A stretch of DNA of 64,000 nucleotides from Actinoplanes sichuanensis (GTDB lineage: Bacteria > Actinomycetota > Actinomycetes > Mycobacteriales > Micromonosporaceae): assembly GCF_033097365.1 (NCBI RefSeq), contig NZ_AP028461.1, forward strand, positions 1 through 64,000. The letters run 5' to 3'. Below are positions 3,148-25,147 of the stretch, piece after piece; position 1 is the stretch's first letter; each line of letters begins with the position of its first letter. The notes beneath the pieces were generated by a model. That model was not told the DNA's origin. It saw nothing but the letters and a program-made list of their open reading frames with translations, and did not search any database. Position numbers and translations under genes: made by a program.

Positions 3148-3163
3148 GACCGCCGTCCCCATG

Positions 3164-8199: not shown

Positions 8200-9678
8200 T
8201 CAGCCTTCCGTCCGCTGGCGCCAGGTGCTGATGAACTGTTCGTACTGGGCCGCGTGGGCGGCGCGTAGGGCGGCAATGAGGCGCAGGGCGTGGTCAGCCA
8301 GTTGCGCGGCGAGATCTGCCCGGCGATGCACGGGAGCGATCTGGCCGGACTCGGCGAAGCACGTCTCGAGTTCGGCGAAGCAGTTGTTGACGGCGGTCAC
8401 CAATGGAGGGATCGACTGGTGGCCGGTGGCATCGAGGGCGGACAGATCGGCGTCTGTCAGGAGCCTTTCGAGCCCCTGCGGCCCGTCGCTCCAGCTGTTT
8501 GAGAGAGGTCGTGGGGTAGGGAAGCCGGGTATCGCCCCGTTGGCCGTGTCGGCGAGATAGGTGAGGTATTTGAGGGTGTAGACGTAGAGGTCGACGATGG
8601 TGTCGAGGGTGCTTTCGTCTTCGGCGACCTCGGGTTTTTCGGCGACGACGGTGAGCCGGTCAACCTTGCGGGCGATGTTCGCCATGATCGAGATTTGTTC
8701 GCCGCGGCGTTTCCATGAGTCGCCGTAGGCGGCGTCCTTACGCCGGTGCAGCTCGGCCACCGCGGCGCGGAAGGTGTGTGCGGTCTCGGTTTCGTGCCCG
8801 GTGTGGGCGTCGGCATGGAGCACGGTCAGGCTTTGGGCACCGAGGTCGAGGCGGACGGTTCCGCCGCCGAGGCGCCGCAGGGCTCGCCAGGCCGTAAAGC
8901 CGGTGAGGATCGCCTTCTCCCAGTCGGCTGCTCGGTGGGCCGAGACTTCCAAGTGCGCGACCATAACCTGGATGGTGTCCAGGACGTCGTTGTCGATGTG
9001 GTCCTTGCCGTCGAGGTACTGATGGCGGCTGGCGTAGGCGAACACCAGGGCGGAGATGCCTTCTTCGATGGCGATGGCACGGCCGCCGTCTTCGGCCAGG
9101 TCGGTCTGCGGGTCGCTGCGGCGTTTGCGTTTCAGCAGGGCGCGCATGACGGGGGACCAGCCGAGGACGGCGGCGTACGACAGATGGAAGACGTCGTGGA
9201 AGTTGTAGCCGTCGGCGACGTGTGAGGCGTCGGTGATGGGGTCGCCGACCTGCTGGCCGTCGCAGGTCAGGACGGACACGTCGCAGCTGCCGTTATGGGT
9301 GACGGTGAACGTGAAGTCGGCCTGGCGGGGGAGTTGTTCGTGCGGTTCACGGTCGTTGTCGAACGGGATGCCGGGGGCGGGGGTTGGCCTCCACCGGTCA
9401 GTGATCTTGCTGAGGTTGGCGGTCGCGATGTCATCGAGCCCGAGGTTTAGATGGTTGGCGACGGTGGACAGATACCAGAGTGCGTCGCCGAGCTCCTCGC
9501 GCATGCGGGCGCGAAATTCCGGGTCGGCCGGCCCGTCGCGCAGTTGCTTCTTGTAGGCGGTCAGTACGGCTCCGGCTTCACCGGCCAAGCCGAGCAGGGC
9601 GACCACCACGGGGTCGCCGCCGCTGTGCAGGGGCTGGACGGTCTTGGCTGCAGAACCTTGGTACGCCGTCATATCCAC
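8200..9678 (-). CDS. MazG-like/DUF1599 (Nmad1) nucleotide-modification-associated protein
   Basis: 492 residues from a GTG at 9678, which has GGGAG eight bases upstream; an ATG at 9672 is an alternative. The first 90 residues match the MazG pyrophosphohydrolase pattern (LLGLAGEAGAVLTAYKK, EELGDALWYLS). A central segment (YNFHDVFHLSYAAVLGWSP, IAIEEGISALVFAYA) looks like a second helical NTP-pyrophosphohydrolase-like unit. The C-terminal part contains RRKDAAYGDSWKRRG, NIARKVDRL and LDTIVDLYVYTLKYL, typical of DUF1599/Nmad1. Known members lie near DNA-base-modification genes. Divergent from the ACP-XRE-IrrE-TS-like operon. Likely hydrolyses or channels a (modified) dNTP; substrate unknown. Confidence 0.75.
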   Translation of the reverse strand: MDMTAYQGSAAKTVQPLHSGGDPVVVALLGLAGEAGAVLTAYKKQLRDGPADPEFRARMREELGDALWYLSTVANHLNLGLDDIATANLSKITDRWRPTPAPGIPFDNDREPHEQLPRQADFTFTVTHNGSCDVSVLTCDGQQVGDPITDASHVADGYNFHDVFHLSYAAVLGWSPVMRALLKRKRRSDPQTDLAEDGGRAIAIEEGISALVFAYASRHQYLDGKDHIDNDVLDTIQVMVAHLEVSAHRAADWEKAILTGFTAWRALRRLGGGTVRLDLGAQSLTVLHADAHTGHETETAHTFRAAVAELHRRKDAAYGDSWKRRGEQISIMANIARKVDRLTVVAEKPEVAEDESTLDTIVDLYVYTLKYLTYLADTANGAIPGFPTPRPLSNSWSDGPQGLERLLTDADLSALDATGHQSIPPLVTAVNNCFAELETCFAESGQIAPVHRRADLAAQLADHALRLIAALRAAHAAQYEQFISTWRQRTEG

Positions 9679-9694
9679 GGCATGCACTCCCAGG

Positions 9695-9761
9695 GGGATG
9701 TTGGATCTTCCGACAATTCCTGCGGTCCTGTTTGAACATCCCACATGGAACGAGCTACAGT
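9695..9761 (+). promoter_or_regulatory. Promoter of the ACP/XRE/IrrE/TS-like operon with inverted repeat
   Basis: TTGAAC (9732-9737) and TACAGT (9756-9761) are spaced by 18 bp, a good sigma-70-type promoter reading towards the ATG at 9805. GGGATGTT (9695-9702) and AACATCCC (9735-9742) form an inverted repeat, with the right arm overlapping the -35 box. This would suit repression by the XRE protein encoded in the operon and could control the divergent gene too. The sites are seen; control is inferred. Confidence 0.5.
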
Positions 9762-9804
9762 CCAGCAGCAGGACGGAGAATCCGACATCGAGATAGGTTG
9801 ATCT

Positions 9805-10089
9805 ATGCGGAGCACCACTGGTCCCACGGTGGAGGAGATCATCGGCGTCGTCGTGCGTCTGCTCGCAGCCGAGAGCGGCGCCTCCGAGGCCGATGTGCGC
9901 GACGAACTGCAGCAGGGCGGCTGGGAAATGCCCATCGACTCGCTGCGCATCGTCGAAATCCTCACCCAGGTGGAACAGCAGTTCGACGTCGAAGTGCCCG
10001 CCGAGGTCGACTCCGCCCGGGCCACACGATCGGTACGCGCCTTCGCCGAACTCGTGCAAGCCGCCTGCATCACCCGCGATAGGAGCTAA
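9805..10089 (+). CDS. Acyl-carrier-protein-like protein
   Basis: 94 residues with a carrier-protein fold signature. The segment EMPIDSLRIVEILTQVEQQF carries the DSL motif whose Ser (about residue 53) normally receives 4'-phosphopantetheine. The following FDVEVPAEVDS and RAFAELVQAA fit ACP helices III and IV. The start has a helical lead (VEEIIGVVVRLLAAE). It opens an operon with XRE, ImmA/IrrE and thymidylate-synthase-like genes. No ketosynthase, adenylation or other carrier-protein partner lies nearby. Whether it is phosphopantetheinylated, and what it carries, is unknown. Confidence 0.75.
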   Translation: MRSTTGPTVEEIIGVVVRLLAAESGASEADVRDELQQGGWEMPIDSLRIVEILTQVEQQFDVEVPAEVDSARATRSVRAFAELVQAACITRDRS

Positions 10090-10094
10090 CGATC

Positions 10095-10520
10095 ATGACG
10101 ACACCAGGACCCGAGGCCGACAACCTCGGCGACGCGAACCTTCTCAGCGACCGGCTCAAGAAGACCCGGGAATACCTCAACTTCTCCCAGCAGTGGGTCT
10201 CCGAACGCACCGGCATCCCCCGCACCGCGATCAGCGAGATCGAACGAGGCTCCCGGCGCGTCGACAGCCTCGAACTCAAGAAACTAGCCCGGCTCTACCG
10301 CTACCCCGTCGGCTACTTCCTCGACGAGGACCTCGACGCGATCCCCGCCGAACACGCCGTCGTAGCGTTACCCCGCAAGCTGACGACCAACCTGCGCCCG
10401 GAGGACCTGACCCAAGTGATGAAGTTCGCCCAGTTCCTCGAGATGTCGCACCAAGCCGAGACCGAACCAGGCGGCGACAACGACCACCCCGTTCCCGAAC
10501 GCCGAGGAACCGCGTCGTGA
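10095..10520 (+). CDS. XRE-family regulator paired with ImmA/IrrE peptidase
   Basis: 141 residues. Helix-turn-helix at about residues 17-70: LLSDRLKKTREYLNFSQQWV, TGIPRTAISEIERGSRRVDS. The C-terminal part ends in an acidic Pro-rich tail that could be the peptidase-sensitive region. AGGAG lies 10 bases before the ATG. The stop overlaps the GTG of the peptidase gene (GTGA). The two genes form the usual XRE-COG2856 pair, in which a signal-activated peptidase inactivates the repressor. It probably represses this operon through the inverted repeat at 9695-9742. Confidence 0.85.
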   Translation: MTTPGPEADNLGDANLLSDRLKKTREYLNFSQQWVSERTGIPRTAISEIERGSRRVDSLELKKLARLYRYPVGYFLDEDLDAIPAEHAVVALPRKLTTNLRPEDLTQVMKFAQFLEMSHQAETEPGGDNDHPVPERRGTAS

Positions 10521-11464
10521 ACTGGTTGATGGCCCACCGGGTCGCCAGCATCGCTGCAGCCACCCTGCGCCGCCGGCTCGACCTGTCCGAGGACCATTAC
10601 GTCGACGTGTTCGCCGGGTTACGCCGCTGCGGGCTCGCCGTCATGGGCCAGGACATGCCGAGCCTGTTCGGCGTCTACCTCCCGCCGGCGCCCGGCCGTC
10701 ACGGCGGGATCTTCCTCAACACGACGATGGGTGAGGCGACGATCCGGCACACGGCGGCCCACGAACTCGGCCACGCCCAATTCGGCCACGAGCGGTGCCT
10801 CGCCGACGGACCCGACCCGTTCCTGGGCACACCCCGGGACAAATGGCCAGCAGAGGAGAAACAAGCCGAGGCGTTCGCCGCCTGGTTCCTGATGCCGATC
10901 CGGCTGGTCAAAGCGACCCTGACCCGGCTGGGACTGGACATCCCTCGCGAGGCGGCCGACGTGTATCAGCTGTCACTGCACCTGGGCACGTCCTACCGCG
11001 GAACGCTGCGACACCTGCAGCATCTGCGGATGGTGCAGTCGCAGGTGGCCCGCGGCTGGGCGACAGTGCAGCCGGCACGGCTGAGGGCTCGTCTCAGCGG
11101 TCAGGCCGAGCAGAGCCCGCCACGGGTCTGGGACCTGCGCAGCCTGACCGAGGGAAGCCGGCTGGCGGTCGAGCAGGGCGACCGGCTTATCGTGCGGGCG
11201 CCCGGCCTCGGCGCCGACCCTGAGGTCACCGGTCCGGCCGGCATCCGCACGCTCAGCACGCCGTACGCGCTCGCACCCGGTGACGGCGTCGAACTTGACG
11301 TCACCGCCGGCATCGACGCCGAATCGACGCTGACGCTGAGCTCCCACGACCGCACACAGACGTGGTCGGCCACGCTTCTTGCCACACCTGAGGGCCATCG
11401 GGGCCTGATCGCTCCGCCGAGTCGTCACGTCCTGGTCGGCCCGGTGAACGGAGTACGGCAGTGA
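10517..11464 (+). CDS. ImmA/IrrE-family metallopeptidase
   Basis: 315 residues from a GTG at 10517 overlapping the XRE stop. The zinc-binding HELGH is at residues 82-86 (TAAHELGHAQFGHERC), with a downstream acidic helix (EEKQAEAFAAWFLMP) supplying the third ligand. The C-terminal 130 residues (from about WDLRSLTEGSRLAVEQGD) are beta-rich and may be a sensor module. Compared with the peptidase at 1940-2812 it is a different lineage. It is followed with 4-bp overlap by the thymidylate-synthase-like gene, so control and catalysis are coupled in one operon. Confidence 0.85.
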   Translation: MNWLMAHRVASIAAATLRRRLDLSEDHYVDVFAGLRRCGLAVMGQDMPSLFGVYLPPAPGRHGGIFLNTTMGEATIRHTAAHELGHAQFGHERCLADGPDPFLGTPRDKWPAEEKQAEAFAAWFLMPIRLVKATLTRLGLDIPREAADVYQLSLHLGTSYRGTLRHLQHLRMVQSQVARGWATVQPARLRARLSGQAEQSPPRVWDLRSLTEGSRLAVEQGDRLIVRAPGLGADPEVTGPAGIRTLSTPYALAPGDGVELDVTAGIDAESTLTLSSHDRTQTWSATLLATPEGHRGLIAPPSRHVLVGPVNGVRQ

Positions 11465-12231
11465 GTTTGATCAGTGTGCAGGCACCGGACGTCTCCACCG
11501 CGTGGCTGGCCGCCGCACGGCGTCTCATCAGCGAGCCAAAACGTAAGGCGATCCACACCGTGACCCGCATCGTCGATCCGACAGGGGAGACGCCCGCCAT
11601 CCGGGCCGCCGTGGACCAGTTGCTGGCCGGCCCCAACCTGCAGGGCGTCGACACGGTGGCGAACACGATCTTTCCCGAGGCGATCGCCCGCACCTGCCGC
11701 GACCACGCACACCTGGTCGAACGGTACCTTCTGATGTACCCGGTGCTGCGCAAGCGGTTCGCCAAGAACGAACGCGGTACCTACTTCGGCCGGTTGATCC
11801 AGTACCCGACCACTAAGCAACCGTTCGACCAGATCGGCGCTGTCATCAGCCGGATCCTCATCGAGCGCCGCGGCGGTAACCCGAAAACGGCCCGATACGA
11901 GACGACCGTGGCCTTCCCGGAAGACGCCGCGAACGCCCCGATCTACGTTCCCGGAACGGACAACAGCCCGATGGCCTTCCCTTGCCTGAGCCACTGCTCG
12001 TTCCAGGCCGACACCGAAGGCCGGGTCCACCTGCTGGCAACCTACCGCAGCCAGTACCTCGTCCAGCGCGGCTACGGCAACTACCTCGGCCTGGGCCGGC
12101 TCCTGGCCCACGTCGCCCAGCAGGCCGGCATGCAGGTCGGGCACCTGACCGTCGTCGCCGGCCACGCGTACCTCGATCCGCCCGTCACGCCGGTCCGCGA
12201 CATGCTCAAGCGCTTTCCCGACGCTGCCTAA
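11461..12231 (+). CDS. Thymidylate-synthase-like protein
   Basis: 256 residues. The last 90 residues align by motif with thymidylate synthase and dNMP hydroxymethylases: FPCLSHCSFQ holds the candidate nucleophile (Cys175 or Cys179), ATYRSQYLVQRGYGNYLGLG gives the Tyr-Arg-Ser and Asn207 positions that read nucleotide and phosphate, and VVAGHAYL the usual H-x-Y (H235). It is not the housekeeping ThyA: the active-site loop differs and the N-terminal 150 residues diverge. Known relatives methylate or hydroxymethylate dUMP or dCMP. Operonic with an ACP-like protein, XRE and ImmA/IrrE. Likely makes or processes a modified pyrimidine nucleotide; the substrate is not predictable. Confidence 0.75.
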   Translation: MSLISVQAPDVSTAWLAAARRLISEPKRKAIHTVTRIVDPTGETPAIRAAVDQLLAGPNLQGVDTVANTIFPEAIARTCRDHAHLVERYLLMYPVLRKRFAKNERGTYFGRLIQYPTTKQPFDQIGAVISRILIERRGGNPKTARYETTVAFPEDAANAPIYVPGTDNSPMAFPCLSHCSFQADTEGRVHLLATYRSQYLVQRGYGNYLGLGRLLAHVAQQAGMQVGHLTVVAGHAYLDPPVTPVRDMLKRFPDAA

Positions 12232-12243
12232 GGGCAGCGACGC

Positions 12244-12513
12244 TCAACGCCCGGACTGTCGATTCCGGCGCGTGCCTGCCGTGTCCAGAACGCTGATGAC
12301 AGCCGGATCATCCAACGCGGTAAGACATTCGTCGGCATAAGCCGAAAACTCGGCCAGCGTCGCCACCAGTCGCGGGTCGGTGACATTGATGTAGCTGCTG
12401 TCCACATGCAGATCCCGGTGGATACGCGCGCCGAGCTGATCCAGCGCGGCAGCCAGGACGGTCACAGCGTCGACGTACGCCGGGTCGTCACCGGTGTGCT
12501 GCTGGGTCGACAT
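12244..12513 (-). CDS. Small hypothetical protein
   Basis: 89 residues, not recognised. It reads as a helical, acidic protein (AYVDAVTVLAAALDQLGARI, LVATLAEFSAYADECLTALD) with no Cys pair, transmembrane segment or DNA-binding motif. A GAG-rich stretch precedes the ATG at 2513+10,000 (12513). It is convergent with the thymidylate-synthase-like operon, ending 12 bp after that stop. Composition and codon use look genuine. Function unknown. Confidence 0.55.
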   Translation of the reverse strand: MSTQQHTGDDPAYVDAVTVLAAALDQLGARIHRDLHVDSSYINVTDPRLVATLAEFSAYADECLTALDDPAVISVLDTAGTRRNRQSGR

Positions 12514-12963
12514 CGAACGCTCCTCAGAGGGTTGGGGACGAGTCTGCGATCATGCCGCAGACGGCGCTGCGACGGCACACCGGCCACTGATCTGCCCGGC
12601 AAACCGGGCCGTCAACGCTGGAGCGGCCCGTCGTCAGCATCAATTCCTGGGAAGAGACCACCGAACGGGTAGTCGGACCCCTCAGACGAACAACGCAGTC
12701 ACCGGCCCGCGCGTTGCGCTGCCCCCACATTCCGGTGACACGCGAGGGGAACCCGCCGCGATCGCGTCGACGCCGCAGCGCCGGTGCAAGCCACGACGAA
12801 CCCTGATCGCTGGAGTTCCGTCACCCACGCAGCCGGCGTCCCCACCACCGACCTCGACACCCGCACCCTGACCCACCGGAAACCACCCTGGGACAACCAG
12901 AACCGCCCACCCAGCGTCCCTGCTCCATCAGCACCGGGCTGACACAACCTCAAAGGAGCCGCC
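12514..12963. other. Intergenic region, 450 bp
   Basis: No convincing coding frame. It separates the small minus-strand gene from the methyltransferase gene and must hold promoters for both. AAAGGAG at about 12952-12958 is the ribosome binding site of the methyltransferase gene. Confidence 0.5.
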
Positions 12964-13923
12964 ATGCACGACGACGACCTCACCAAACTCGCCGCCGACC
13001 TCGAAACCGAACTGCTCAACGGCGCCACGACCGTAGCCATCCTCGGCGCCACCCCCACCGCCCTCAGAATCATCGCGCGGCTCGCCGCCACCGGACTTGA
13101 CACCTGCATCCACGGCATCTACACCGACCAGTGCATCACTGCATCGCTGCGTGTGCCCCTGCGAGCTCTGCACGAACTACGCGATCCCGCGATCGACGTC
13201 GTGGTCGTCGCTGACGACGCCGACAAGCAAACACTGCTACAGGCGGCGCTACCGCACCTCACCGGTACCCCGAAAGTCCTGGTCGCCGGCTACGGCCACC
13301 TCGCCTACCGCGACCCCGGCTACCATCGGGAACTGGCCGCCCTGCTGGTGCCGTCACTGGCCAACGGCTACCCCAACACGCTGCCCCACCTGCACCAGTG
13401 CCTGACAAACGCCGCCCGGCTCGGCCTCAACGGCGTCGTCGCCGAGTTCGGCATGCACAAAGGCGGCACCACCATGTTCCTGTCGCGCATCATCGAGCAA
13501 CTCGGCGTCGACTGGCCCGTCATCGGCTTCGACACCTTCACCGGTTTTCCGGCCCGCCGCAGCCCTCTGGACATGTACGACCATCCCGATTGTGTGTTCA
13601 CCGACCTCGACGCCGTACGCCGCTACTTCACCGGCCGCAACGTGGACATCGTCGCCGGTGACATCACCGCCACCGCCGGGCGCCTCGACACCGAAGACCT
13701 GGTCTGCACCTTCATCGACACCGACAACTACACCCCGGCCCGCGCCGCGATCACCATCGTCCAGGAACGCACCGTGGTCGGCGGGGCGATCGTCTTCGAC
13801 CACTTCACCGGCGTCGACCGGTTCCGTTACACCCTCGGCGAACGCATTGCCGCACTACCTCTTCTGGAGGACCCCCGCTACTTCCACCTACACGGAACAG
13901 GTGTCTTCTACCGCCAGCGGTAG
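12964..13923 (+). CDS. TylF/MycF-family SAM-dependent methyltransferase with N-terminal Rossmann-like domain
   Basis: 319 residues. The first 130 residues form a nucleotide-binding-like domain (GATTVAILGATPTALRI, IDVVVVADDADK) of the kind found ahead of some sugar methyltransferases. The C-terminal part has the TylF-family SAM-binding motif VVAEFGMHKGGTTMFLSRII, then VIGFDTFTGFP and the metal/substrate motif FIDTDNYTPARAAI, ending VFDHFTG. Relatives O-methylate sugars. AAAGGAG with good spacing sets the start. It lies 31 bp before the HMUDK-helical-like gene, so both may modify the same product; a nucleotide-linked sugar or base is inferred. Confidence 0.8.
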   Translation: MHDDDLTKLAADLETELLNGATTVAILGATPTALRIIARLAATGLDTCIHGIYTDQCITASLRVPLRALHELRDPAIDVVVVADDADKQTLLQAALPHLTGTPKVLVAGYGHLAYRDPGYHRELAALLVPSLANGYPNTLPHLHQCLTNAARLGLNGVVAEFGMHKGGTTMFLSRIIEQLGVDWPVIGFDTFTGFPARRSPLDMYDHPDCVFTDLDAVRRYFTGRNVDIVAGDITATAGRLDTEDLVCTFIDTDNYTPARAAITIVQERTVVGGAIVFDHFTGVDRFRYTLGERIAALPLLEDPRYFHLHGTGVFYRQR

Positions 13924-13954
13924 CCGCAGGGCTTGCCAAGACCGTTAGGTTGGC

Positions 13955-14992
13955 GTGATGACCCGGCGACCGCCCACGCCCCGCAAAGGCGTCTACGAGC
14001 TGTACTGGTACTACGCCAGCCAACGCCAGGCCATGTTCGAACAACGCGTCGCCGGCGAACCCGCCCCCTGGAGCAGCGACCCCATCCTGGCCGTCTACAA
14101 GTTCTGCAACGTCTACCGCGCCGCCGACCGCGTCAGCCAATACATGATCCGCGATGTCTGCTACCACGACGAAGACTGCAGCCCACAGGACCGGATCTTC
14201 CAGATCATCGCCTTCCGCACCTTCAGCAAGATCGACACCTGGCGGACCGTCCGCGCCCACCTCGGCCGCTACCCCACCCTCGACGACCTCGCCGACGGCA
14301 GCTTCACCACCGCGCTCGAGCACGCCGGCCACACCAACGGCGGCCTCTACACCGGCGCCTTCATTCTCTGCGCCACCGACGCCTACGGCCAGGGCCGCAA
14401 ACACCTCAACCACGTCGAGCTCTGGCGCCACATGTTCCTCGCCGACGACCTCGCCGACCGCATCCTCGACGCGACCAGCCTGCGGCACGTCTACGACCTG
14501 CTGCACGGCTACCCGCTCATGGGCGACTTCATGTCCTACCAGACCGCGATCGACCTCAACTACTCGGCGCTGGTCAACTTCAGCGAGAACGACTTCACCC
14601 AGCCCGGACCCGGAGCCCTGCGCGGCATCCGCAAATGCTTCGAAGATCTCGGCGCCTACAAACCGGCCGACGTGATCATGTGGATGCAGCAACACCAGGC
14701 CGAGGAAATGGACCGTCTTGGCCTACCGTTCAACGGCCTCTACGGCAGGCCCCTGCACGCCATCGACTGCCAAGGCCTGTTCTGCGAAACCGACAAATAC
14801 TGCCGCGAAAAAGTCCCCGAACTCGCCAGTGCCCGCAGCCGCATCAAAGCCCGCTTCACCCAGAACCTTGCGCCCATTCAGCTATTTTTCCCACCGAAGT
14901 GGGGCATAAGCCCAGCCGCGTACGCCGCCACCCACGATGGGCCACCGGCCCAGCTGGCTGTCACACCACCGGGCGAACTGATCGGCCATTGA
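13955..14992 (+). CDS. 5-hmdU DNA kinase helical-domain (aGPT-Pplase) family protein
   Basis: 345 residues. The N-terminal WYYASQRQAMFEQR followed by PWSSDPILAVYKFCNVYRAA and DRVSQYMIRDV matches the pattern of the domain first predicted as alpha-glutamyl/putrescinyl-thymine pyrophosphorylase and later found in 5-hydroxymethyl-dU DNA kinases of phages with hypermodified thymine. No Walker A kinase loop is visible, so this is a stand-alone helical-domain protein. The C-terminal half continues helical with a Cys-rich patch (IDCQGLFCETDKYC). The thymidylate-synthase-like and Nmad1 genes nearby support a base-modification role. Exact activity is unknown. Confidence 0.7.
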   Translation: MMTRRPPTPRKGVYELYWYYASQRQAMFEQRVAGEPAPWSSDPILAVYKFCNVYRAADRVSQYMIRDVCYHDEDCSPQDRIFQIIAFRTFSKIDTWRTVRAHLGRYPTLDDLADGSFTTALEHAGHTNGGLYTGAFILCATDAYGQGRKHLNHVELWRHMFLADDLADRILDATSLRHVYDLLHGYPLMGDFMSYQTAIDLNYSALVNFSENDFTQPGPGALRGIRKCFEDLGAYKPADVIMWMQQHQAEEMDRLGLPFNGLYGRPLHAIDCQGLFCETDKYCREKVPELASARSRIKARFTQNLAPIQLFFPPKWGISPAAYAATHDGPPAQLAVTPPGELIGH

Positions 14993-15182
14993 CAATGGAT
15001 TCCCCGTTCGCGACGTGATGCGGCGGACCCACAACGCAGTGCCAGGATGAGCCCGTCAGCCATGGCAGTGGCACCGTCGGCGCCCCTTGCAACAGCGCAA
15101 CCTTTCCGGCCGGCGCCGAAGACAGCTTGCCAGTGCCGGCCAAACCGTCCTTCGCGTCCCCGCAGCACGGCACACTGAAGCC

Positions 15183-16650
15183 GTGACGATCGGGCACGAC
15201 CACAGCGACGGGGCGCTACGCATCGAGGTCGCCCTCAACTCGCCAACCGGCCGGTTCGATCTCCGGATCGTTGACGAGGGCCCGCGGACGCTGACCGCGC
15301 AGGAGAAGCAACTAATCCTGGCTGACGCCCTACGCAGCGTCACACCCCGGCCCGAGACCACCGGAGGACAGGCGTCGGCTTCACGCATTCCCGTCGGGAG
15401 TTGGGGAACCATCCATCACGTCGAACAAGGACCGGGCAAATGGCGGGCCTGGGCGACGTTCCGGGATACCGACGAGGTGACTCGTGTGGTGCAGGCACAC
15501 GCGAGCAGCCGCCAGCGGGCAGAAACCAAACTGATCGCGAAGCTCGGAGACCGAGCCCACCACGAACTGACCGCCACGACACGGGTGAGCAGCCTGGCCG
15601 ATCTTTGGCTCGAGGAAATCAAGATGGAGGGGCGCATCCTCACGCAGACCGTCGACCGCTACACCGGATGCCTGCGTCAAACCGTGCTCCCCGGGTTCGG
15701 CGAGCTGCGCATCAACGAGCTGACAGTCGGGCGACTCGATCGATTCCTCAAAACGCTCGCCAAGGCCAAACCGTCGCAGGCACGCAACGCCAAAGTCGTG
15801 CTGAAACAGATGCTGTCGATGGCCGTACGGCACGGCGCCATCGCGGCCAACCCCATACGCGAAATTGGGCAGCTTCCCCGGGCCAGACGGCCGGTCAACG
15901 CACTCACGCTCGATGAACTCGGCATCATCCGTGCGGCCATCGAGCTGCGGCAGCATCGACGCGGCGCTGGACCTCGTCGCAACGGCAACCTCGCCGACAT
16001 CGTCGAGCTACTGATCGCCACCGGCGCCCGGGATCGGCGAAGTCCTGGCGCTGCGATGGCAGGACATCGACCTTGACGACGACTGCCCGACCGCAACGAT
16101 CTGCGGAACGATCGTCTTCGTTAAGGGGCAAGGCTTCTCGCGGCAGGACCGCACGAAGACCGACGCCGGGTTCCGGACAGTGATCTTGCCGGGTTTCGTC
16201 GTCGATGTGTTGTGGCGGCGATTCAACGACCGTGCGCATCCGGCCCGCGGCCAGCACAGCATCAACGCTGTCTTCGCGAGCCGCAACGACACCTGGCTTT
16301 CGCCCTACAACGTCGGCCGGCAGTGGCGTGAAGTGCGCAACCAAGCCGGGTTGGAGTGGGTCACGCTGCACGTTTTCCGTAAGACAGTAGCCACGGTGCT
16401 CGACGATGCCGGCAAGACCAAGGAGGCGTCGCGCCAGCTCGGACACGCCAGCGAAGAAGTCACCAAGGCCTATTACATCGCCAAACCGAAGCTCGTGCCG
16501 GACGTCACCGACGTCCTGGACGCACTCGGACCCCGCCCCAGATCGATCACCGAAGCCATCCTGGCCGAAAAGAGCGCGCTTGCTCGGCCGATAGAAGGTG
16601 CCTTGTGCGGCTCTGCGGTGCGGCAAGCGGTCGCCGTGCCGCCACCGTGA
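15183..16650 (+). pseudogene. Tyrosine recombinase (integrase), frameshifted
   Basis: Tyrosine recombinase of about 485 residues starting near the GTG at 15183. The N-terminal arm-binding part (VGSWGTIHHVEQGPGKWRAW) and core-binding domain (LADLWLEEIKMEGRILTQTV) are followed by the catalytic domain. At about 16029-16032 one extra G in CCCGGGATC shifts the frame: ATGAR must be joined to IGEVLALRWQDIDLDDD. The rest is good: LHVFRKTVATVLDDAGKTKE (HxxR variant), QLGHASEEVTKAYY with the Tyr nucleophile. If the indel is real the integrase is dead. Probably belongs to the element carrying the defence island. Confidence 0.85.
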
Positions 16651-17075: not shown

Positions 17076-17108
17076 ATGAATCATCCTCACCTGCGGGCGG
17101 TTCGGTGA
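17076..17108 (+). CDS. Possible 10-residue leader peptide
   Basis: ATG at 17076 with GGAAAGGAAG upstream encodes MNHPHLRAVR. Its TGA overlaps the GTG start of the REase gene (GTGA). The REase GTG has no ribosome binding site of its own, so translation could be coupled through this leader. Seen in sequence; expression untested. Confidence 0.3.
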   Translation: MNHPHLRAVR

Positions 17109-18220
17109 ATCCCGCGACCGTCAAGTCGGAAATGATCTTAGCTTTGATCACCTCGGGGCTGATGCGGCTACCCACTTGGATAGGTCCCGAGGACAGCCGG
17201 ACGCCCTACCCGACAGCCTTGCAACAAGGATTCGACCATCTGACGTGGGCGTGCTGGATGGCAGCCGCAGATCCCCCCACCGACATCGGGGACCTGGTCA
17301 CCAACTGGTGCACCAAGCCGCTGTCCACCTGGCCGCTGGAATGGCCAGACGGCGCCATCGGCCCCGGCGACCAATTGGTCATCGACGGCGAGCCGACGGA
17401 AACCTGCCGGGACTGGGCCGTCTCGAATCCCGACGTCATCAGCGAAGTGCTGGAAAGCGCCTTCATGCGCGACGTACGTTCCACCTGCCGCAGCATGGGC
17501 CCACCCGGGCAGACCGTTTACGTCGCGCTGCGCCGCCTTTTGATCGACTCACCGACCTTGACGGGTCTGGAACTGCTTTCCATGCGCAATACCTTCCCGG
17601 ATTTGCCGTCATGGTCCGACTGGCTGAGCGAAGCCTACGAGCCGGCACAACCCGACGACATCCTCGACGGTAACGTCGGTGTCTGCCGCAACTGCGACCA
17701 CCTGGTCAGGCACACCGCCCGCTCCGGATGGCGCTGCGCCACGCCGCGGTGCCAGGCGTTGCCGCGGCCACCGCAGGTAACCACCAAACCGGCCAAGGGC
17801 GTCGTGAAACTACGCCGTGACCTCAGCATCTACATCAGCCTTCCCGGCCGCCCAGAGGCTGACCTCGCCCGGGCCCTCGAGAAAACCGGCGCCACCGTCC
17901 TGTGGTGGCCGGACGTCGACGTCTACGACCTGCTGGCCATCTGGCCCGACGGCCGCCGCTGGGGCATCGACGTCAAGGACTGGCGAACCCCCTACGCCCT
18001 GGCCCGGCGACTGCGCCCGCTGCCGTCGTTCCCCACCGGACACGAGTACGCCTACACCGACGGGTTTGTGGTCATCCCCGATGACCGGACCCGCAAGCAA
18101 CGCAACTACCTGCACATCCTCCGCCGGCACAGCGCAGCACTGCGCGAGCAGCCACAAACTAAAGCCCTGTCCGTGTCGCAGCTGCTGACCAAGGCGAAGG
18201 GACCGACCCGTGGCGCGTGA
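17105..18220 (+). CDS. REase of the pPIWI-RE system (zinc ribbon plus PD-(D/E)XK)
   Basis: 371 residues. After a helical N-terminal part, a zinc ribbon is formed by C194-C197 (VCRNCDH) and C211-C216 (WRCATPRC). A restriction-endonuclease-like domain follows: E251 (RPEADLARAL), D275 (DVYDLLAIW) and D289-x-K291 (WGIDVKDWR). A zinc-ribbon REase next to a DinG-type helicase and a PIWI-like protein is the described layout of pPIWI-RE systems, predicted to act on R-loops of invading DNA. Its 3' end overlaps the helicase start by 11 bp. Confidence 0.8.
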   Translation: MNPATVKSEMILALITSGLMRLPTWIGPEDSRTPYPTALQQGFDHLTWACWMAAADPPTDIGDLVTNWCTKPLSTWPLEWPDGAIGPGDQLVIDGEPTETCRDWAVSNPDVISEVLESAFMRDVRSTCRSMGPPGQTVYVALRRLLIDSPTLTGLELLSMRNTFPDLPSWSDWLSEAYEPAQPDDILDGNVGVCRNCDHLVRHTARSGWRCATPRCQALPRPPQVTTKPAKGVVKLRRDLSIYISLPGRPEADLARALEKTGATVLWWPDVDVYDLLAIWPDGRRWGIDVKDWRTPYALARRLRPLPSFPTGHEYAYTDGFVVIPDDRTRKQRNYLHILRRHSAALREQPQTKALSVSQLLTKAKGPTRGA

Positions 18221-21200
18221 CCGGGGACGCTGGCACGAACGACTCAGCAAGGACATCAAACAGGCAGCCAAGGACCGCGGATGGAAAGTCGACGCCATCG
18301 AACTCGTCACCGTCGAACTGGTCCTGACCCTGGCCCGGCTCGTATCCCCGGGGGAACCAGCTAGCGGCGCCTGGGCTCAGCTCAAGGGCTACCGCTTCAC
18401 CGACGCCGGCGAACACGCAGACCACTCGATGTCCGTGATCGTGTGGCTCGTCGGCGAGCTCAAATCCGAACCGGTGTGGCGCGAAGCTCTATCCGACTAC
18501 CTGTCCATGCCCGAACAACTACGGGCTTACCTGCTCGACGGCCCCGACGACATCGTCCCGCCACACCGCAGACCACCACTGGTCGGCGACCGGCACGACG
18601 ACTACCTCGCCGCCCTCGCACAATTCCCGCCCCACCGCGGCGACGACATGCCCGTCGCGCAAGCCGGCGAGAACTACTGGGTCGCGGCCGACGACGGCCG
18701 AGAGACCATCACCATCCCCACCCACCTGCCCGAACCCGGCCTGCTGACGCGCCACGACTTCAGCGCCGCCCCGCAACGACGGCCCGTACACCTCGACTGG
18801 CAGGAACTGGTCACCTTCGCCGCCGGCCTCGACGACGAAGACCGTCGACACAACCGAGACTCCCAACGCTGGCACAGCCGCTTCGAAGACCTCATCCTGC
18901 GCCTACGGCAAACCGATGACACCTTCACACGAGCAGCCACGCTCGACCTGACCCAACTGCACCACCTCGCCGGTATGGTCGGCGCCGGCAAAAGCACACT
19001 GATGGACCTGCTCGCGATCTGGGCGGCACGCCACCAACACCGCATCACCATCGTGGTCGCCGACGTCGTGTCGGTCCTGAACCGCGTCGAGCTGTACCGC
19101 CGCTACGGCGTCACCGCAGCACCCGTGCTCGGCGCCTCCGGTCGAGGCCGCCACATCCAGCAACTCCACCGCCCCGGCGTACGCCGCACCGACGGACTCA
19201 CCGCGATGGACACTCCACTGCTGCGGTGGGCGTCCTCGGCCTGCGCCCTGAGCAGCCAACGAACCGACCCCCAGCCCTGGCACCTCGACGAGGCACCGTG
19301 CCTACGCCTCAAACAGGACCAGATCGGGCCCCGCGGCGGCAAGACTGTCGTCGACCACGTCTGCCCGCTCTGGACCCGCTGCCAGCGCCACCACGCCTCC
19401 CGCGAACTCGTCGACGCCAAAGTATGGGTGACCACCCCCGCCGGACTGGTCTTCAGTCGAGTCCCGCAGCCGCTGATCGACGTGAACCTGCGCTACCTCG
19501 AACTGGCCTGGTACCGCAGCGACCTGATCATCGTCGACGAAGCCGACCAGGTACAAACCCAGCTCGACGGCATCTTCAGCCCCAGCCAGACCCTTGCCGG
19601 CGACGGCGACGACGCCTGGATGGACGTCATCGACGCCGCCAAGAAGACGGAACTACGCGCCCGCGGACGCGGGCCCATGCGCATCCCGAAGATCGCCCGA
19701 TGGGTGCAACTGGTCGACAACGCCGACATGCTGATCTCGCGTATCTACGCACTACTCGGCGACCAACCCCACCTGCGTGCGTGGGTCGGCGACGGCTACT
19801 TCAACGAATGGACCCTCGCCGTCCGGCTCACCGCCATGTTCGCCAGAGTCCCCACCCGCCCCGATGCCGCCGACAACACCGCCGACGCCGGCAACACTCC
19901 ACCACCGATCGACCCGCAACGGGCCCAAGCCTGGCGCAAAAGCTTCTCCGCCTGGTCCCTGGCACCCACCAAAACCGAACAACCCACCCAGGACCGCCAC
20001 GCCGACAAACTGCGCCGATTCAGCGAGCAAACCGCGTTCCGAGACGACGCCGCGATCACCAAAATGCTGGCGACCTGGCTGTCGACCCTCACCGACATCA
20101 CCCCACCCGAAACCGCCGAAGACCGCACCGACCTGGCCCTGAAACTGCACTTCACGCTCCTGGTCGGCATCCTCACCCACCACATCAGCAGCATCACCGG
20201 CCGCTGGAACGACGTCGAAGGCCCCCTGCGCATGCGCGGCCACGGCTCCAGCCTCGTGCACCGCCCACCCATCGAATACGTCGCGATGGTCCCCGACTCA
20301 CCCATGGGCAACCTCATCGGCCTGCAATACCAGCACGACGACGACGCCCACCCCGACCGGCTCGGCTCCCTGCGGTTCTTCCGCTGCAACGGCATCGGCC
20401 GCTGGCTACTGCTCAACCTGGCCAACCTCTACGCCGACCAGCACGCCCACCCACCCGGCGTACTACTGATGTCAGCCACCAGCTGGGCCGGCACCTCACC
20501 CCGCTACGACCTGCAAGTACCCGTCACCGGCGTCCTGCAAGCCCCACCTCGGGAACTAGCCGGCATCAACGCCAGCGTCTTCCACTACAGCCCACAGCGT
20601 TACGGAACCACCGACAAACGCATCAACATCTCCGGCACCCCACCCGACAAACGGCCCGCCGCCCTAGCCGCCATGGTCGAGCAACTCGCACGCATCATCG
20701 ACGACGGCCTCGGCGCCCAGCCCAGCAAACTCGAACAACAACGCGACGCGCTACCACCCGGCCGGCAACGCATCATGCTGCTCGTCGGCAGCTACAGCGA
20801 ATGCGCCCAGGTCGAAGCCACACTCCTACGCGCCCGGCCCGACTGGAACGAACAGATCCTGCGCCTGATCCCCGACGACGCCAGCTACACCCACCAATGG
20901 ACCGGCCGCACCCTGGCACGTGGCAGCGTCGCCGAACTCCGCCACACCGACGCATGGCTGCTCATCGCCCCGCTACTCGCCGTCGAACGCGGACACAACA
21001 TCCTCAACGACGAACGAGTCGCCGCCCTCGGCGCCGCCTACTTCCTCGTACGCCCCCACCCCCGCCCCGACGACATCTCCTACCACGTCCAAGACATCAA
21101 CCGCTGGGGCGTCGAACAAATCCGCAACGGACTACCCGCAGCCGGCCCCGCCACCATCGCCGCCGAACGAGCCAAAGCATTCATCGCCGAAGCCGGAACC

Positions 21201-21527
21201 CGATGGCGCCGCGCCCTCGCCCACCCACTGATGCTCTCGCGCATGAACGACGACGAACAAACCGCCTTCATGTGGACGCAACTCGTCACCATCTGGCAAG
21301 TCATCGGCCGGCTCGTACGCGGAGGCCAAGCCGCCACCATCCACTTCTGCGACGCCGCCTTCGACCCCAGCTCCGACACCAGCCTGCTCGTCGGCATGCA
21401 CCGCGTCCTCACCGACGCCCGGGCCGGCAAAGGCATCCGCCCGCAAGACGTCGAACTCGCCACCATCCTCTACGAGCCCTTGCACCGCGCTCTGACCACC
21501 CTATTGGAGCCCTACCGTGCGCTATGA
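18210..21527 (+). CDS. DinG/XPD-like Fe-S helicase of the pPIWI-RE system
   Basis: 1105 residues. Walker A GMVGAGKST at about 256-263, Walker B DLIIVDEADQVQ at about 437-446. Between them four Cys (near 344, 363, 384, 390; APCLRLKQ, HVCPLWTRCQRH) are placed like the [4Fe-4S] cluster of XPD/DinG helicases. The C-terminal RecA-like domain includes LLMSATSW, an Arg-rich MLLVGSYSEC strand and QVIGRLVRGG (motif VI). The N-terminal 240 residues are a system-specific domain. Predicted to unwind DNA or R-loops. Overlaps both neighbours by about 11 bp, so the three genes are one transcript. Confidence 0.85.
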   Translation: MARDRGRWHERLSKDIKQAAKDRGWKVDAIELVTVELVLTLARLVSPGEPASGAWAQLKGYRFTDAGEHADHSMSVIVWLVGELKSEPVWREALSDYLSMPEQLRAYLLDGPDDIVPPHRRPPLVGDRHDDYLAALAQFPPHRGDDMPVAQAGENYWVAADDGRETITIPTHLPEPGLLTRHDFSAAPQRRPVHLDWQELVTFAAGLDDEDRRHNRDSQRWHSRFEDLILRLRQTDDTFTRAATLDLTQLHHLAGMVGAGKSTLMDLLAIWAARHQHRITIVVADVVSVLNRVELYRRYGVTAAPVLGASGRGRHIQQLHRPGVRRTDGLTAMDTPLLRWASSACALSSQRTDPQPWHLDEAPCLRLKQDQIGPRGGKTVVDHVCPLWTRCQRHHASRELVDAKVWVTTPAGLVFSRVPQPLIDVNLRYLELAWYRSDLIIVDEADQVQTQLDGIFSPSQTLAGDGDDAWMDVIDAAKKTELRARGRGPMRIPKIARWVQLVDNADMLISRIYALLGDQPHLRAWVGDGYFNEWTLAVRLTAMFARVPTRPDAADNTADAGNTPPPIDPQRAQAWRKSFSAWSLAPTKTEQPTQDRHADKLRRFSEQTAFRDDAAITKMLATWLSTLTDITPPETAEDRTDLALKLHFTLLVGILTHHISSITGRWNDVEGPLRMRGHGSSLVHRPPIEYVAMVPDSPMGNLIGLQYQHDDDAHPDRLGSLRFFRCNGIGRWLLLNLANLYADQHAHPPGVLLMSATSWAGTSPRYDLQVPVTGVLQAPPRELAGINASVFHYSPQRYGTTDKRINISGTPPDKRPAALAAMVEQLARIIDDGLGAQPSKLEQQRDALPPGRQRIMLLVGSYSECAQVEATLLRARPDWNEQILRLIPDDASYTHQWTGRTLARGSVAELRHTDAWLLIAPLLAVERGHNILNDERVAALGAAYFLVRPHPRPDDISYHVQDINRWGVEQIRNGLPAAGPATIAAERAKAFIAEAGTRWRRALAHPLMLSRMNDDEQTAFMWTQLVTIWQVIGRLVRGGQAATIHFCDAAFDPSSDTSLLVGMHRVLTDARAGKGIRPQDVELATILYEPLHRALTTLLEPYRAL

Positions 21528-24189
21528 CCACATCCAGGAGCTGGTGTTCCCCCTCGACCCCACCCTGATGACCGGCCTGCTGCAGCCCTACCAGGCATGC
21601 ACCTTCCCCACCACGTGGAAGACAGCGCTCACCGAATTCCTCAACCCCGGCGCCACCAACGGCCCACGCCGGGCCCCGCTGCGCGACCTGACAACCGCCT
21701 TCTCCACCTTCCAACCGGAAGTGATCGTCAACGACGCCCGCGGCGACAACCAACTCTGGCTCGGCGCCGCCACGAAACCCGACGACGCGGCGCTCACCGC
21801 ACTCATCCACAGCGGCGTAGTCACCACCGCGCACGCATACGCCAAGCGATACCCGCGCCGACAGATACAGCTCCAGCAACTACCGGACCTACTGGCAGGC
21901 ATGAACCCCGACCGGGACCTGACCTGGACCCAAGTCGACCCGGTGCCACGGCCCGGCAAGACCGCCGGAGACCCCGTCTTTCGGCTGCTACCCGACCTGC
22001 TCGCCGCCCAGCTGGTAGGCGACAACGGATTCAGCGTCGACCACGGCGGCGTCGCCACCTCACGATTCCAGCGCATCACCACGACCAACGGCGCCGAACT
22101 GGTGTCCTGGCCGCCGCACTACCATCCCCGCCGCAAACGCCGCTGGCCCTGGTCCTACGTCATCGGCCTCACCGTGCAGACCTACCCCGACAACCCGCAG
22201 CCGCACCTGTTCGTCACCATCGGCCTACGCCGATACGCCAGCGGCAAAATCTTCCTCAAGAACTACAAACGCGCGCTCTCCGTCGCCGTCAAGGCACCCG
22301 CCCCCTGGTACGACGGCCACCTGCCACCGGTATTCGCCCGCTCCAGCATGAAATGGCGACCCGGCGCCTACGGCAAGAAAGACGGCTTCTGGGACTGGAC
22401 CGACGACATCGTCGCCGTCCTGCAGCGCTACCACGCCCAGATGCAGCTCCCCAGCCCCGCTGACCTCGCTAACGACGCCCTGCGACAGATCCCCGAACTG
22501 CCGCAGTACGAGGCCGGCTTCGAAACCGCCGTCTTCTATCGCACCGGCTTCAGAGACAAACACCCCGTCGGTGACGGAGTATCCGCCCACGACCGCTGGC
22601 GGATCTTCGAGGCACTCCGCGACGCCCTCACCCCCCACCTCCAAGCCGTCAAACTCACCGACCGCGTACCCCACGTCAGCACCCCACCCCGGCCGCCGGC
22701 CAAGAAGGACGGCGTCCGCATCGACGCCGACAAGGTCGCCGCCGCCATCGGCCGCAACATCACCTTCGAGATCTGGTGGCAGACCACCACCATCCGCGAC
22801 GAAACACTCGCACAGCTGAGCAGCGTGCTTCAGATGCCACCCCTGACCCCCGGACCAGAACCGGACACCTGGAACACCGAAAACCACGCACTGCGAGTCA
22901 CCGCACGCGCCCGCACCCTCGCCGACCGCGACCTCGCGCAGAAACTGAACACCGACCCCAAGATCATCAAAAAGGCTGATCGGATCCGGGCCGCCGCCAC
23001 CAACCGGATCAGCAACATCCGCGACTGGCTCTTCCAGCAGCCCGCTACCGAACCCACCTTCACGATGGTCGAACTCGACGACGGCGACGCGTTCACCGAC
23101 GAAGACGACCCCAAATTCGCCACCCGCATCGGGGCCGGCCGCACCCACCGCAACACCCAGTTCCTCACCCCATACACCACAGCGGAGAAAAATAAAGATC
23201 GCCGCATCCGCATCGAGCAGTGCCTGAGAGAGCTGTTCGTCCGCCACGCCGGCCTCCCGGCACGCCCCCTGAAACTCGGCCTCGACCACGAGACACTGCC
23301 CGCCACCACCCGAGTCGTCGGCCTCTGGCTCGTCCGCAAGAACAGCCCGCAAAACACCGCCTACCCCATCGCCGTCTGCTGCGACCCCCGCCAGCCCGTC
23401 GTCAAAGTCCGACTACCCGGCGACCGCACGTGGCTGCCCATGCACCAAGCACAGCTACGCCTGAGCACCCTCCACGGCGACGAAGCGCTCATGACCCCCA
23501 AACAGGTCACCGCCTTCATCGACGACCTGCTCGAACAACTCAACTCCCTCAACGGCCCAACGCTGCTGATCAGCCACGCGCAGAACCTGCGCAGCAACTG
23601 GTACAACACCTCCAACGGCAGACTGCGCCTCGACGAGCTCAGCACCAGCGACATCCACGTCCCCGCAACGCGATACCCCAACATCCGGTTCGTCCGCGTC
23701 CGCACGAACCTCAACAAAGAGACCTCGCAACACTTCGCCTACGCCGAACGCAAAGAACAAGACCCCGAAGGCAAACTGACAACCATCAAGACTATCGGGC
23801 TCAGCGCCGGCCTATGGCGACCCGACAGCACGAACAGTCGACTCTTCTTCAGCACACCCGACAAACCCGTCACCGCCTCAAAGACCTCACCCCGAGGATC
23901 CCGCCTCGAGCTACGCGTCAAGAAGGTCAAAGACCGACCCGATGAGTTCGTCCTCGACATCGGTGCCGAAGTCTGGAACCCCCAACTCGTCGAATACTTC
24001 GTCGCCGCGCTGCAACCCGGCGACAACCCCGCACCATGGGCGGCAGCAGCCCACCAATACCGCTACGCCGCCGCGCACTACGACGACCCGACAGTCCTAC
24101 CTCTACCGCTGCATTTGGCCCGCAAAGCGGGTGAGTACCTATTCCCTGCGTATCAGCTCGATGCCAGCATCAGCGAAACCGCTGTGTAG
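21517..24189 (+). CDS. pPIWI-RE protein, Argonaute-like
   Basis: 890 residues from a GTG at 21517, overlapping the helicase stop. It has the layout of pPIWI-RE proteins: an N-terminal module of about 400 residues and a C-terminal RNase-H-fold PIWI-like domain (FVRVRTNLNKETSQHFAYAE, IGLSAGLWRPDSTNSRLFFS) near residues 725-800. The tail (LPLPLHLARKAGEYLFPAY) resembles the conserved PIWI C-terminus. Family members are thought to bind a guide and act with the helicase and REase. Catalytic status of the RNase-H site cannot be judged by eye. Assignment rests mainly on gene order plus the C-terminal motifs. Confidence 0.75.
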   Translation: MRYDHIQELVFPLDPTLMTGLLQPYQACTFPTTWKTALTEFLNPGATNGPRRAPLRDLTTAFSTFQPEVIVNDARGDNQLWLGAATKPDDAALTALIHSGVVTTAHAYAKRYPRRQIQLQQLPDLLAGMNPDRDLTWTQVDPVPRPGKTAGDPVFRLLPDLLAAQLVGDNGFSVDHGGVATSRFQRITTTNGAELVSWPPHYHPRRKRRWPWSYVIGLTVQTYPDNPQPHLFVTIGLRRYASGKIFLKNYKRALSVAVKAPAPWYDGHLPPVFARSSMKWRPGAYGKKDGFWDWTDDIVAVLQRYHAQMQLPSPADLANDALRQIPELPQYEAGFETAVFYRTGFRDKHPVGDGVSAHDRWRIFEALRDALTPHLQAVKLTDRVPHVSTPPRPPAKKDGVRIDADKVAAAIGRNITFEIWWQTTTIRDETLAQLSSVLQMPPLTPGPEPDTWNTENHALRVTARARTLADRDLAQKLNTDPKIIKKADRIRAAATNRISNIRDWLFQQPATEPTFTMVELDDGDAFTDEDDPKFATRIGAGRTHRNTQFLTPYTTAEKNKDRRIRIEQCLRELFVRHAGLPARPLKLGLDHETLPATTRVVGLWLVRKNSPQNTAYPIAVCCDPRQPVVKVRLPGDRTWLPMHQAQLRLSTLHGDEALMTPKQVTAFIDDLLEQLNSLNGPTLLISHAQNLRSNWYNTSNGRLRLDELSTSDIHVPATRYPNIRFVRVRTNLNKETSQHFAYAERKEQDPEGKLTTIKTIGLSAGLWRPDSTNSRLFFSTPDKPVTASKTSPRGSRLELRVKKVKDRPDEFVLDIGAEVWNPQLVEYFVAALQPGDNPAPWAAAAHQYRYAAAHYDDPTVLPLPLHLARKAGEYLFPAYQLDASISETAV

Positions 24190-24876: not shown

Positions 24877-25147
24877 CCTCATCCAGCCGCGTACCTAATG
24901 AAGCGTTTGGATCGTGGTCTCCCACAGGCGGCGGAGTAGTCCGCGCGTGGCAGCCGATCATCCGAGGGTCCACCAGGTCCCGTCCGGGCGATCCTGAAGT
25001 CGTATGGAGTGACGATGGGGACTGGCGCGCCAGACATCATCGTCGCGGTGCCGAGGTGGCCGAAGCGATGAGCAACGCCGCTGTGATAGACCGTTGCAGG
25101 GCATCCCGGCGAGGAGAGCCGCCGGCACGGTAGCTGAGGGGTATTGC

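What the first reader, a model, noticed from the sequence alone, without database searches (positions are those of the whole stretch)
8200..14992. Possible chromosomal pyrimidine or DNA-base hypermodification locus under XRE-ImmA/IrrE control
Six genes bring together a MazG/Nmad1 (DUF1599) protein, an ACP-like protein, an XRE-IrrE switch, a thymidylate-synthase-like protein, a TylF-type methyltransferase and a 5-hmdU-kinase-helical (aGPT-Pplase) protein. Nmad1, TS-like and HMUDK-helical families are each linked to phage base hypermodification. A bacterial accessory locus adding a carrier protein, a methyltransferase and a peptidase-controlled repressor is, to my knowledge, not described. It could make an anti-phage modified nucleotide or DNA base, or destroy phage ones.
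Basis: partly seen in the sequence, partly recalled or inferred. Interest (0 to 1): 0.88.

Follow-up and report, generated by a model that had tools for sequence, protein, structure and literature searches.

The report
Probable nucleotide-modifying bacterial defence operon
A soil bacterium carries, beside known anti-virus genes, a recurring set of genes that looks built to alter DNA building blocks and the bases of DNA, apparently switched on by a damage-sensing protease; what it does has not been tested.

Summary
The genes are real and the neighbourhood is strongly conserved. In order: MazG/MazG_C (-); acyl-carrier protein, XRE repressor, IrrE peptidase and thymidylate-synthase-like (TS) protein (+); TylF methyltransferase and HMUDK_hel protein (+). 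In 26 non-redundant loci with the TS-like gene (Actinomycetota, Cyanobacteriota, Pseudomonadota, viral-collection contigs) XRE and IrrE are present in 26, the carrier protein in 24, MazG_C in 21, HMUDK_hel in 21. Four others carry a uracil-DNA glycosylase instead. The carrier serine is invariant in 19 of 19; five loci encode a holo-ACP synthase. HMUDK_hel's predicted fold resembles a phage 5-phosphomethyl-dU glycinyltransferase and DNA glycosylases; the TS-like fold is nearest MilA and a phage dCMP hydroxylase. The module lies between two integrase-type genes, with pPIWI-RE, OLD-like and HamB-like genes downstream. Best reading (0.45): an XRE-IrrE-controlled defence module that makes a modified pyrimidine nucleotide and acts on that base in invading DNA. 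The DUF1599/Nmad1 call fails, and the window copy has lost one of two HMUDK genes. Related domains were recently validated or predicted as defensive (PMC13092281), so this is a new variant of a known kind. Function is untested.

The parts
8200..9672 (-). MazG NTP-pyrophosphohydrolase-like domain + MazG_C + C-terminal extension (about 490 aa)
   Evidence: PF18722 E 1e-77, PF03819 E 6e-5; start ATG chosen from the translation; conserved next to ACP in relatives
9700..9714 (.). operator-like site GTTGGATCTTCCGAC (1 mismatch to GTCG-N7-CGAC) in the MazG/ACP divergent spacer
   Evidence: motif chosen after seeing the alignment (post hoc)
9772..9786 (.). second operator-like site GACGGAGAATCCGAC (1 mismatch)
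9805..10089 (+). acyl-carrier protein, phosphopantetheine Ser46 in a DSL motif
   Evidence: PF00550 E 2e-4; Ser invariant in 19 of 19
10095..10520 (+). XRE-family repressor
   Evidence: HTH_3 E 3e-10
10517..11464 (+). ImmA/IrrE (M78) metallopeptidase with C-terminal extension; GTGA overlap with XRE
   Evidence: PF06114 E 9e-9; PADLOC capP E 4e-12; HExxH invariant in 11 of 11; junction
11461..12231 (+). thymidylate-synthase-fold protein; GTGA overlap with IrrE
12244..12513 (-). conserved 89-aa protein of unknown function
   Evidence: no family; tblastn 60-71% identity in L001, L002, L018, L020, L021
12577..12949 (.). junction where relatives carry HMUDK-a and a small ORF (deleted here)
   Evidence: flanks align at 12285-12576 (L018) and 12950- (L020)
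12964..13923 (+). TylF-type SAM methyltransferase
   Evidence: PF05711 E 1e-9
13955..14992 (+). HMUDK_hel (aGPT-Pplase-like) protein, type b
   Evidence: PF18723 E 5e-99; model pLDDT 88.3; fold nearest PUGT 8z2n
15087..16650 (+). phage-integrase-type recombinase, split by stop codons/frame, next to the module
   Evidence: PF22022 and PF14659 on one piece, PF00589 on the other
17105..24189 (+). neighbouring pPIWI-RE three-gene defence system (context, not part of the module)
   Evidence: PADLOC PprRE, PprDinG, PprPIWI; PF18154/18156/18155/13032/13111

Best explanation
A mobile, damage-inducible defence (conflict) module that acts on pyrimidine nucleotides and on bases in DNA. Inferred mechanism: (1) XRE holds the divergent MazG/ACP promoters silent through GTCG-N7-CGAC sites. 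(2) On invasion or DNA damage the IrrE peptidase cleaves XRE, as CapP cleaves CapH, and the ACP-XRE-IrrE-TS operon and its partners are expressed. (3) MazG/MazG_C converts dNTPs to dNMPs and the TS-like enzyme modifies C5 of a pyrimidine nucleotide; the phosphopantetheine carrier supplies or carries a further group. (4) The product enters newly made DNA, or is completed on it. (5) The glycosylase-fold protein (HMUDK_hel here, uracil-DNA glycosylase in the other variant) flips that base and alters or removes it, spoiling the invader's DNA. TylF would add an O-methyl group in the TylF-containing versions. Shown: gene content, conservation, linkage, predicted folds, conserved motifs, neighbouring defence genes. 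Inferred: every biochemical step, the anti-phage role and the trigger.
Confidence: 0.45

Rival explanations
1. Recognition of phage-modified DNA: HMUDK_hel or UDG excises or blocks modified thymines that phages bring in (Brig1/Brig2-like), while MazG and TS only clean or rebalance the nucleotide pool.
For: DNA-glycosylase-type fold; UDG swap; glycosylase defences Brig1, Brig2, Dag1/Dag2 exist (passages of PMC13216743).
Against: Those passages present the antiviral glycosylases as single enzymes; here a TS-like enzyme, carrier protein and, in 5 of 26 loci, a holo-ACP synthase are kept with it. Glycosylase catalytic residues were not tested.
Confidence: 0.2
2. Self-marking: the module hypermodifies the DNA of its own cell or mobile element, as phages do, to shield it from restriction.
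For: Phage relatives of HMUDK_hel (414 of 50,697 phage records); copies on plasmids; PUGT-like fold.
Against: The TS-like protein has no match in 50,697 phage records; an IrrE switch suggests inducible, not constant, use; no P-loop kinase among the window proteins; UDG in variant 2 would remove bases, not protect them.
Confidence: 0.15
3. The module makes a modified nucleotide that serves as an immune signal rather than entering DNA; HMUDK_hel and MazG_C form the generator or sensor and other genes the effector.
For: In other contexts HMUDK_hel sits near TIR and Nmad2 genes (L031, L043) and with a CBASS-type phospholipase and MazG (L043).
Against: No such effector was seen in the TS-type module itself; the UDG swap points to DNA.
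Confidence: 0.12
4. Nucleoside natural-product cluster: MilA-like nucleotide modification, carrier protein and TylF make a secreted nucleoside antibiotic.
For: TS fold nearest MilA (mildiomycin pathway by recall); ACP, AcpS and TylF are common in biosynthetic clusters (recall); actinobacterial hosts.
Against: The core recurs in plasmids of cyanobacteria, rhizobia and a Burkholderia without a shared transporter or adenylation gene in the annotations seen; TylF is in only 6 of 26 loci.
Confidence: 0.08

Closest known systems
DefensePredictor systems with thymidylate synthase, 5-hmdU kinase, MazG, MazG-C, aGPT-Pplase domains (PMC13092281)
   Same: Same domain vocabulary; systems with a thymidylate synthase and a 5-hydroxymethyluracil kinase domain were validated against phage in E. 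coli MG1655
   Different: The parts read mention no carrier protein, holo-ACP synthase, IrrE or TylF; whether their 5hmdUk is PF18723, and which genes share a transcription unit, is in figures and tables that could not be read
Phage thymidine hypermodification enzymes (aGPT-Pplase; PUGT, solved structure 8z2n)
   Same: HMUDK_hel family match and predicted fold; TS-superfamily enzyme
   Different: TS-like protein has no match in 50,697 phage records; no P-loop kinase at the locus; carrier protein, IrrE switch and UDG swap are extra
CapH/CapP (XRE/IrrE) switch of CBASS and PprI/DdrO
   Same: Adjacent XRE and HExxH M78 peptidase with operator-like sites in a divergent promoter
   Different: Linked to a nucleotide-modification operon rather than a cyclase; cleavage and ssDNA activation untested
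MilA CMP hydroxymethylase and phage dCMP hydroxylase AfhB
   Different: 14-16% identity; substrate unknown
Brig1/Brig2 anti-phage DNA glycosylases
   Same: Glycosylases in defence (passages of PMC13216743)
   Different: Described there as single enzymes; here embedded in a multi-gene module, and glycosylase activity is untested

Membership tests
PF18723 HMUDK_hel / aGPT-Pplase | profile match over the curated cut-off | tested here: met
   331.5 bits against cut-off 25
PF18723 HMUDK_hel / aGPT-Pplase | amino-acid or amine transfer to 5-phosphomethyl-dU in DNA | not testable with these tools
Nmad1 (PF07659, DUF1599) | profile match | tested here: not met
   no match in the own genome at E<=1; none in the Pfam scan at E<=0.1
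Thymidylate synthase superfamily | fold | tested here: met
Thymidylate synthase superfamily | catalytic Cys and substrate Asn conserved | tested here: met
   C175 and N207 invariant 20/20, aligned to host ThyA; their roles are recalled
Canonical ThyA | His/Tyr sugar-contact motif and curated profile score | tested here: not met
   motif not conserved (role recalled); PF00303 15 bits against cut-off 24.3
Acyl-carrier protein | phosphopantetheine serine | tested here: met
   invariant 19/19
CapH/CapP-type switch | adjacent XRE and HExxH M78 peptidase | tested here: met
CapH/CapP-type switch | ssDNA-activated cleavage of the repressor | not testable with these tools
   biochemistry
Phage 5-hmdU hypermodification pathway | P-loop 5-hmdU DNA kinase in the locus | tested here: not met
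   no P-loop kinase family among the eight window proteins scanned; PF18723 is named after the kinase's helical domain only
DefensePredictor TS/5hmdUk systems | same gene set as the validated E. coli system | tested here: inconclusive
DefensePredictor TS/5hmdUk systems | anti-phage activity | not testable with these tools
   needs plating assays
Brig-type DNA glycosylase defence | glycosylase activity on modified bases | not testable with these tools
PADLOC-DB v2 known systems | model match for module proteins other than IrrE | tested here: not met
   0 of 5 non-IrrE proteins scanned (MazG, ACP, TS, TylF, HMUDK) matched at E<=0.01; XRE was not scanned

The most novel reading that the evidence does not exclude
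A new class of bacterial immunity in which the cell, on sensing single-stranded DNA through IrrE, makes a carrier-protein-derived hypermodified pyrimidine nucleotide, lets it enter the invader's DNA, and then destroys or cross-marks that base with an exchangeable glycosylase-fold enzyme: a make-and-break base-poisoning defence.
Probability: 0.25. Interest if true: 0.92.

Novelty: new variant of a known kind. Interest (0 to 1): 0.66.

Why it matters
If right, bacteria use phage-style base chemistry as a weapon, with a carrier protein as a part not met in the passages read here, and with a glycosylase-fold component that can be swapped for a uracil-DNA glycosylase. It would make testable what MazG_C, HMUDK_hel and TS-like genes scattered through plasmids do, and could yield a new modified nucleoside.

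Tried and rejected
Nmad1/DUF1599 for the MazG protein: rejected. Chagasin fold for the C-terminal part of the window's IrrE: not supported (hhalign probability 3), although variant-2 IrrE proteins carry it. Phage origin of the TS-like gene: no match in the phage collection. TS-like protein as the host's thymidylate synthase: rejected, ThyA lies at G000 10977613; ThyX not found. Sequence-only searches for solved relatives of the TS-like and HMUDK proteins found nothing credible; only fold comparison did. Remnants of HMUDK-a between 12577 and 12949: none at useful E-values. The operator motif at one mismatch is frequent in the window (224 hits against 95.5 in shuffles, mostly in coding DNA by position), so only its presence in the spacer counts. 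Literature: the listings showed no paper describing this gene set, but several were capped (30 of 557 papers, 20 of 40, 20 of 22, 8 of 47, 10 of 107, 10 of 53) and were judged by title and start of abstract; the key predictions (Iyer 2013, Burroughs 2015, Lee 2018 and 2022, known to me from recall and reference lists) are not held. Absence from print is therefore not shown.

Rows dropped or not fetched: L017, L019 and L060 are second copies of L001, L002 and L053 and were not counted; L062 (TS E 2e-6, partial, no XRE or IrrE seen) was left out, so 26 of 27 with it. Plasmid HMUDK records fetched: 17 of 21. Plasmid records with a TS match fetched: 10 of 21 (four through TS hits, six through HMUDK hits of the same records); L046's TS-like gene, in two pieces, was seen only. 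Many training sequences of the HMMs come from the same loci, so presence in those is partly by construction. The 18 viral-contig HMUDK loci include two that look like one sequence (L071, L072).
Full report
What is there. The reported stretch holds a minus-strand MazG/MazG_C gene (8200-9672) facing a plus-strand operon ACP (9805-10089), XRE (10095-10520), IrrE (10517-11464), TS-like (11461-12231); then a small minus-strand gene (12244-12513) and a plus-strand pair TylF (12964-13923) and HMUDK_hel (13955-14992). XRE-IrrE and IrrE-TS overlap by GTGA. PF07659 (Nmad1) does not match. The host is, by inference, an Actinoplanes: the A. regularis contig of L001 (104,820 bases) has the length of contig C44 of G221, which is labelled same genus, and L017 from G221 gives the same matches as L001.

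Conservation. TS-like relatives were found in 2 loci of genome contigs, 4 of 60 relatives (own included, one a weak partial hit), 8 of 300 family genomes (own included), 4 of 396 phylum genomes (own included), 21 plasmid records, 0 of 50,697 phage records and 2 viral-collection loci. All 10 non-own chromosomal loci taken as 20-kb stretches carry HMUDK_hel within about 2 kb of the TS-like gene. PF18723 searched independently in 246 Actinomycetota genomes rang in 4, the same four that have the TS-like gene. In the tabulation non-redundant loci carry the TS-like gene: XRE 26, IrrE 26, ACP 24, MazG_C 21, HMUDK_hel 21, C1 peptidase 7, TylF 6, AcpS 5, UDG 4, dCTP-deaminase-like 4. Named hosts include Actinomycetota, Cyanobacteriota (L034, L041), and Alpha- and Betaproteobacteria (L038, L042, L046, L048, L049, L050). 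L025, from another family of the phylum, has AcpS, ACP, XRE, IrrE, C1 peptidase, TS, HMUDK, TylF and MazG_C together.

Two variants. In four of the 26 loci HMUDK_hel is absent and a uracil-DNA glycosylase stands in its place (L038, L048, L049, L050). There the IrrE protein ends in a chagasin-type inhibitor domain (PF09394 E 7e-8 in L048, 2e-4 in L038, only 0.03 in L049; L050 not scanned); the same domain is in L046 (9e-4) and L057 (4e-6), which have HMUDK_hel. L048, L057 and L025 show that the domain is not universal with the protease: L025 has the C1 peptidase (PF00112 E 6e-7) but no PF09394 match at E<=0.01. The IrrE gene is followed by a papain-family C1 peptidase that keeps the Cys, His and Asn motifs (recalled as catalytic) in 5 of 5 aligned: an apparent inhibitor-protease pair. 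L025, L046 and L057 carry the C1 peptidase together with HMUDK_hel, which ties the variants into one system.

The window copy. Relatives L001, L018, L020 and L021 have two HMUDK genes: type a next to the 89-aa gene, and type b paired with TylF (partial in L018). Flanks of the missing type-a gene align up to 12576 and from 12950, and the genome has a single PF18723 match, so the window has lost type a and kept TylF plus type b. TylF occurs in 8 non-redundant loci (window, L001, L018, L020, L021, L025, L031, L045), each time beside an HMUDK gene.

Proteins. The ACP serine is invariant in 19 of 19 sequences, the most distant 14% identical to the window's, and L042's AcpS matches PF01648 at E 1e-18, so the carrier is probably charged. 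The TS-like family keeps the catalytic-type Cys and the Asn but not the ThyA His/Tyr pair; its model (pTM 0.82, pLDDT 75.6, 5 sequences) is nearest MilA and a phage dCMP hydroxylase. The HMUDK model (pLDDT 88.3) is nearest the phage 5-PmdU glycinyltransferase PUGT, then the queuine salvage enzyme DUF2419 and DNA glycosylases, with weak Foldseek statistics. The roles of single TS residues are from recall.

Control and context. The MazG/ACP spacer holds GTCG-N7-CGAC-like palindromes: exact in 5 of 13, at most one mismatch in 11 of 13 spacers, against 0.035 and 0.70 expected from mononucleotide shuffles; the motif was picked after seeing the alignment of 12 of these spacers. The IrrE protein matches CapP; ssDNA-activated cleavage of CapH by CapP is reported in a passage of PMC10904395. 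The module lies between integrase-type genes at 2-946 and 15087-16650. Downstream follow pPIWI-RE, an OLD/GajA-like gene and a HamB/PDC-M23B-like helicase; a second IrrE gene lies upstream. Among one neighbour protein (the best-scoring long ORF outside the module) taken from each of 10 relatives, 3 matched PADLOC models at E<=1e-10 (L001, L023, and L024 weakly), 7 did not.

Function. The exchange of HMUDK_hel for UDG, the pyrimidine-nucleotide enzymes beside them, and the likely inducible switch suggest that a modified pyrimidine is made and then acted on in DNA. The defence role rests on the neighbouring defence genes, the plasmid and sporadic distribution, and on published work: PMC13092281 (sections 5 and 8 and passages read) validated E. 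coli systems containing a thymidylate synthase and a 5-hydroxymethyluracil kinase domain and lists aGPT-Pplase, MazG and MazG-C among predicted defence domains. Whether those share this architecture could not be read. I therefore rate it a new variant of a known kind, with a categorically new mechanism possible.

Noticed in passing
window 17105-24189: A pPIWI-RE three-gene defence system (PprRE, PprDinG, PprPIWI) directly downstream.
   Followed up: partly
window 25094-27079 and 27760-33195: OLD/GajA-like ATPase-TOPRIM gene, and a HamB/PDC-M23B-like helicase (29407-33195) preceded by a 326-aa gene with no Pfam match at E<=0.001 and no PADLOC match: possibly a divergent Hachiman-like pair.
   Followed up: partly
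window 1314-3153 (-): A second XRE-like/IrrE pair (IrrE capP E 2e-17) with a PDC-S70-like gene behind it.
   Followed up: no
L038, L046, L048, L049, L057: IrrE peptidase with a chagasin-type inhibitor domain (weak in L049), followed by a papain-family protease gene: an apparent protease/inhibitor pair inside the operon.
   Followed up: partly
L031 4686-5830 and L043 3527-4660: TIR gene plus an Nmad2 gene (PF18753 E 5e-71 and 2e-81) near HMUDK_hel; L043 also has a CBASS-type phospholipase gene overlapping HMUDK_hel.
   Followed up: no
L037 7388-13688 and L047 4945-12221: SAM methyltransferase, DnaQ-like exonuclease, HMUDK_hel and a DnaE gene together on Sphingomonadales plasmids.
   Followed up: no
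L052 2825-6840 (Brevibacterium phage LuckyBarnes): Thymidylate synthase, two annotated glucosyltransferases and HMUDK_hel in a row.
   Followed up: no
L042 1662-3638: An extra thymidylate synthase and a dCTP deaminase gene stand just upstream of the module on a Sinorhizobium fredii plasmid.
   Followed up: no
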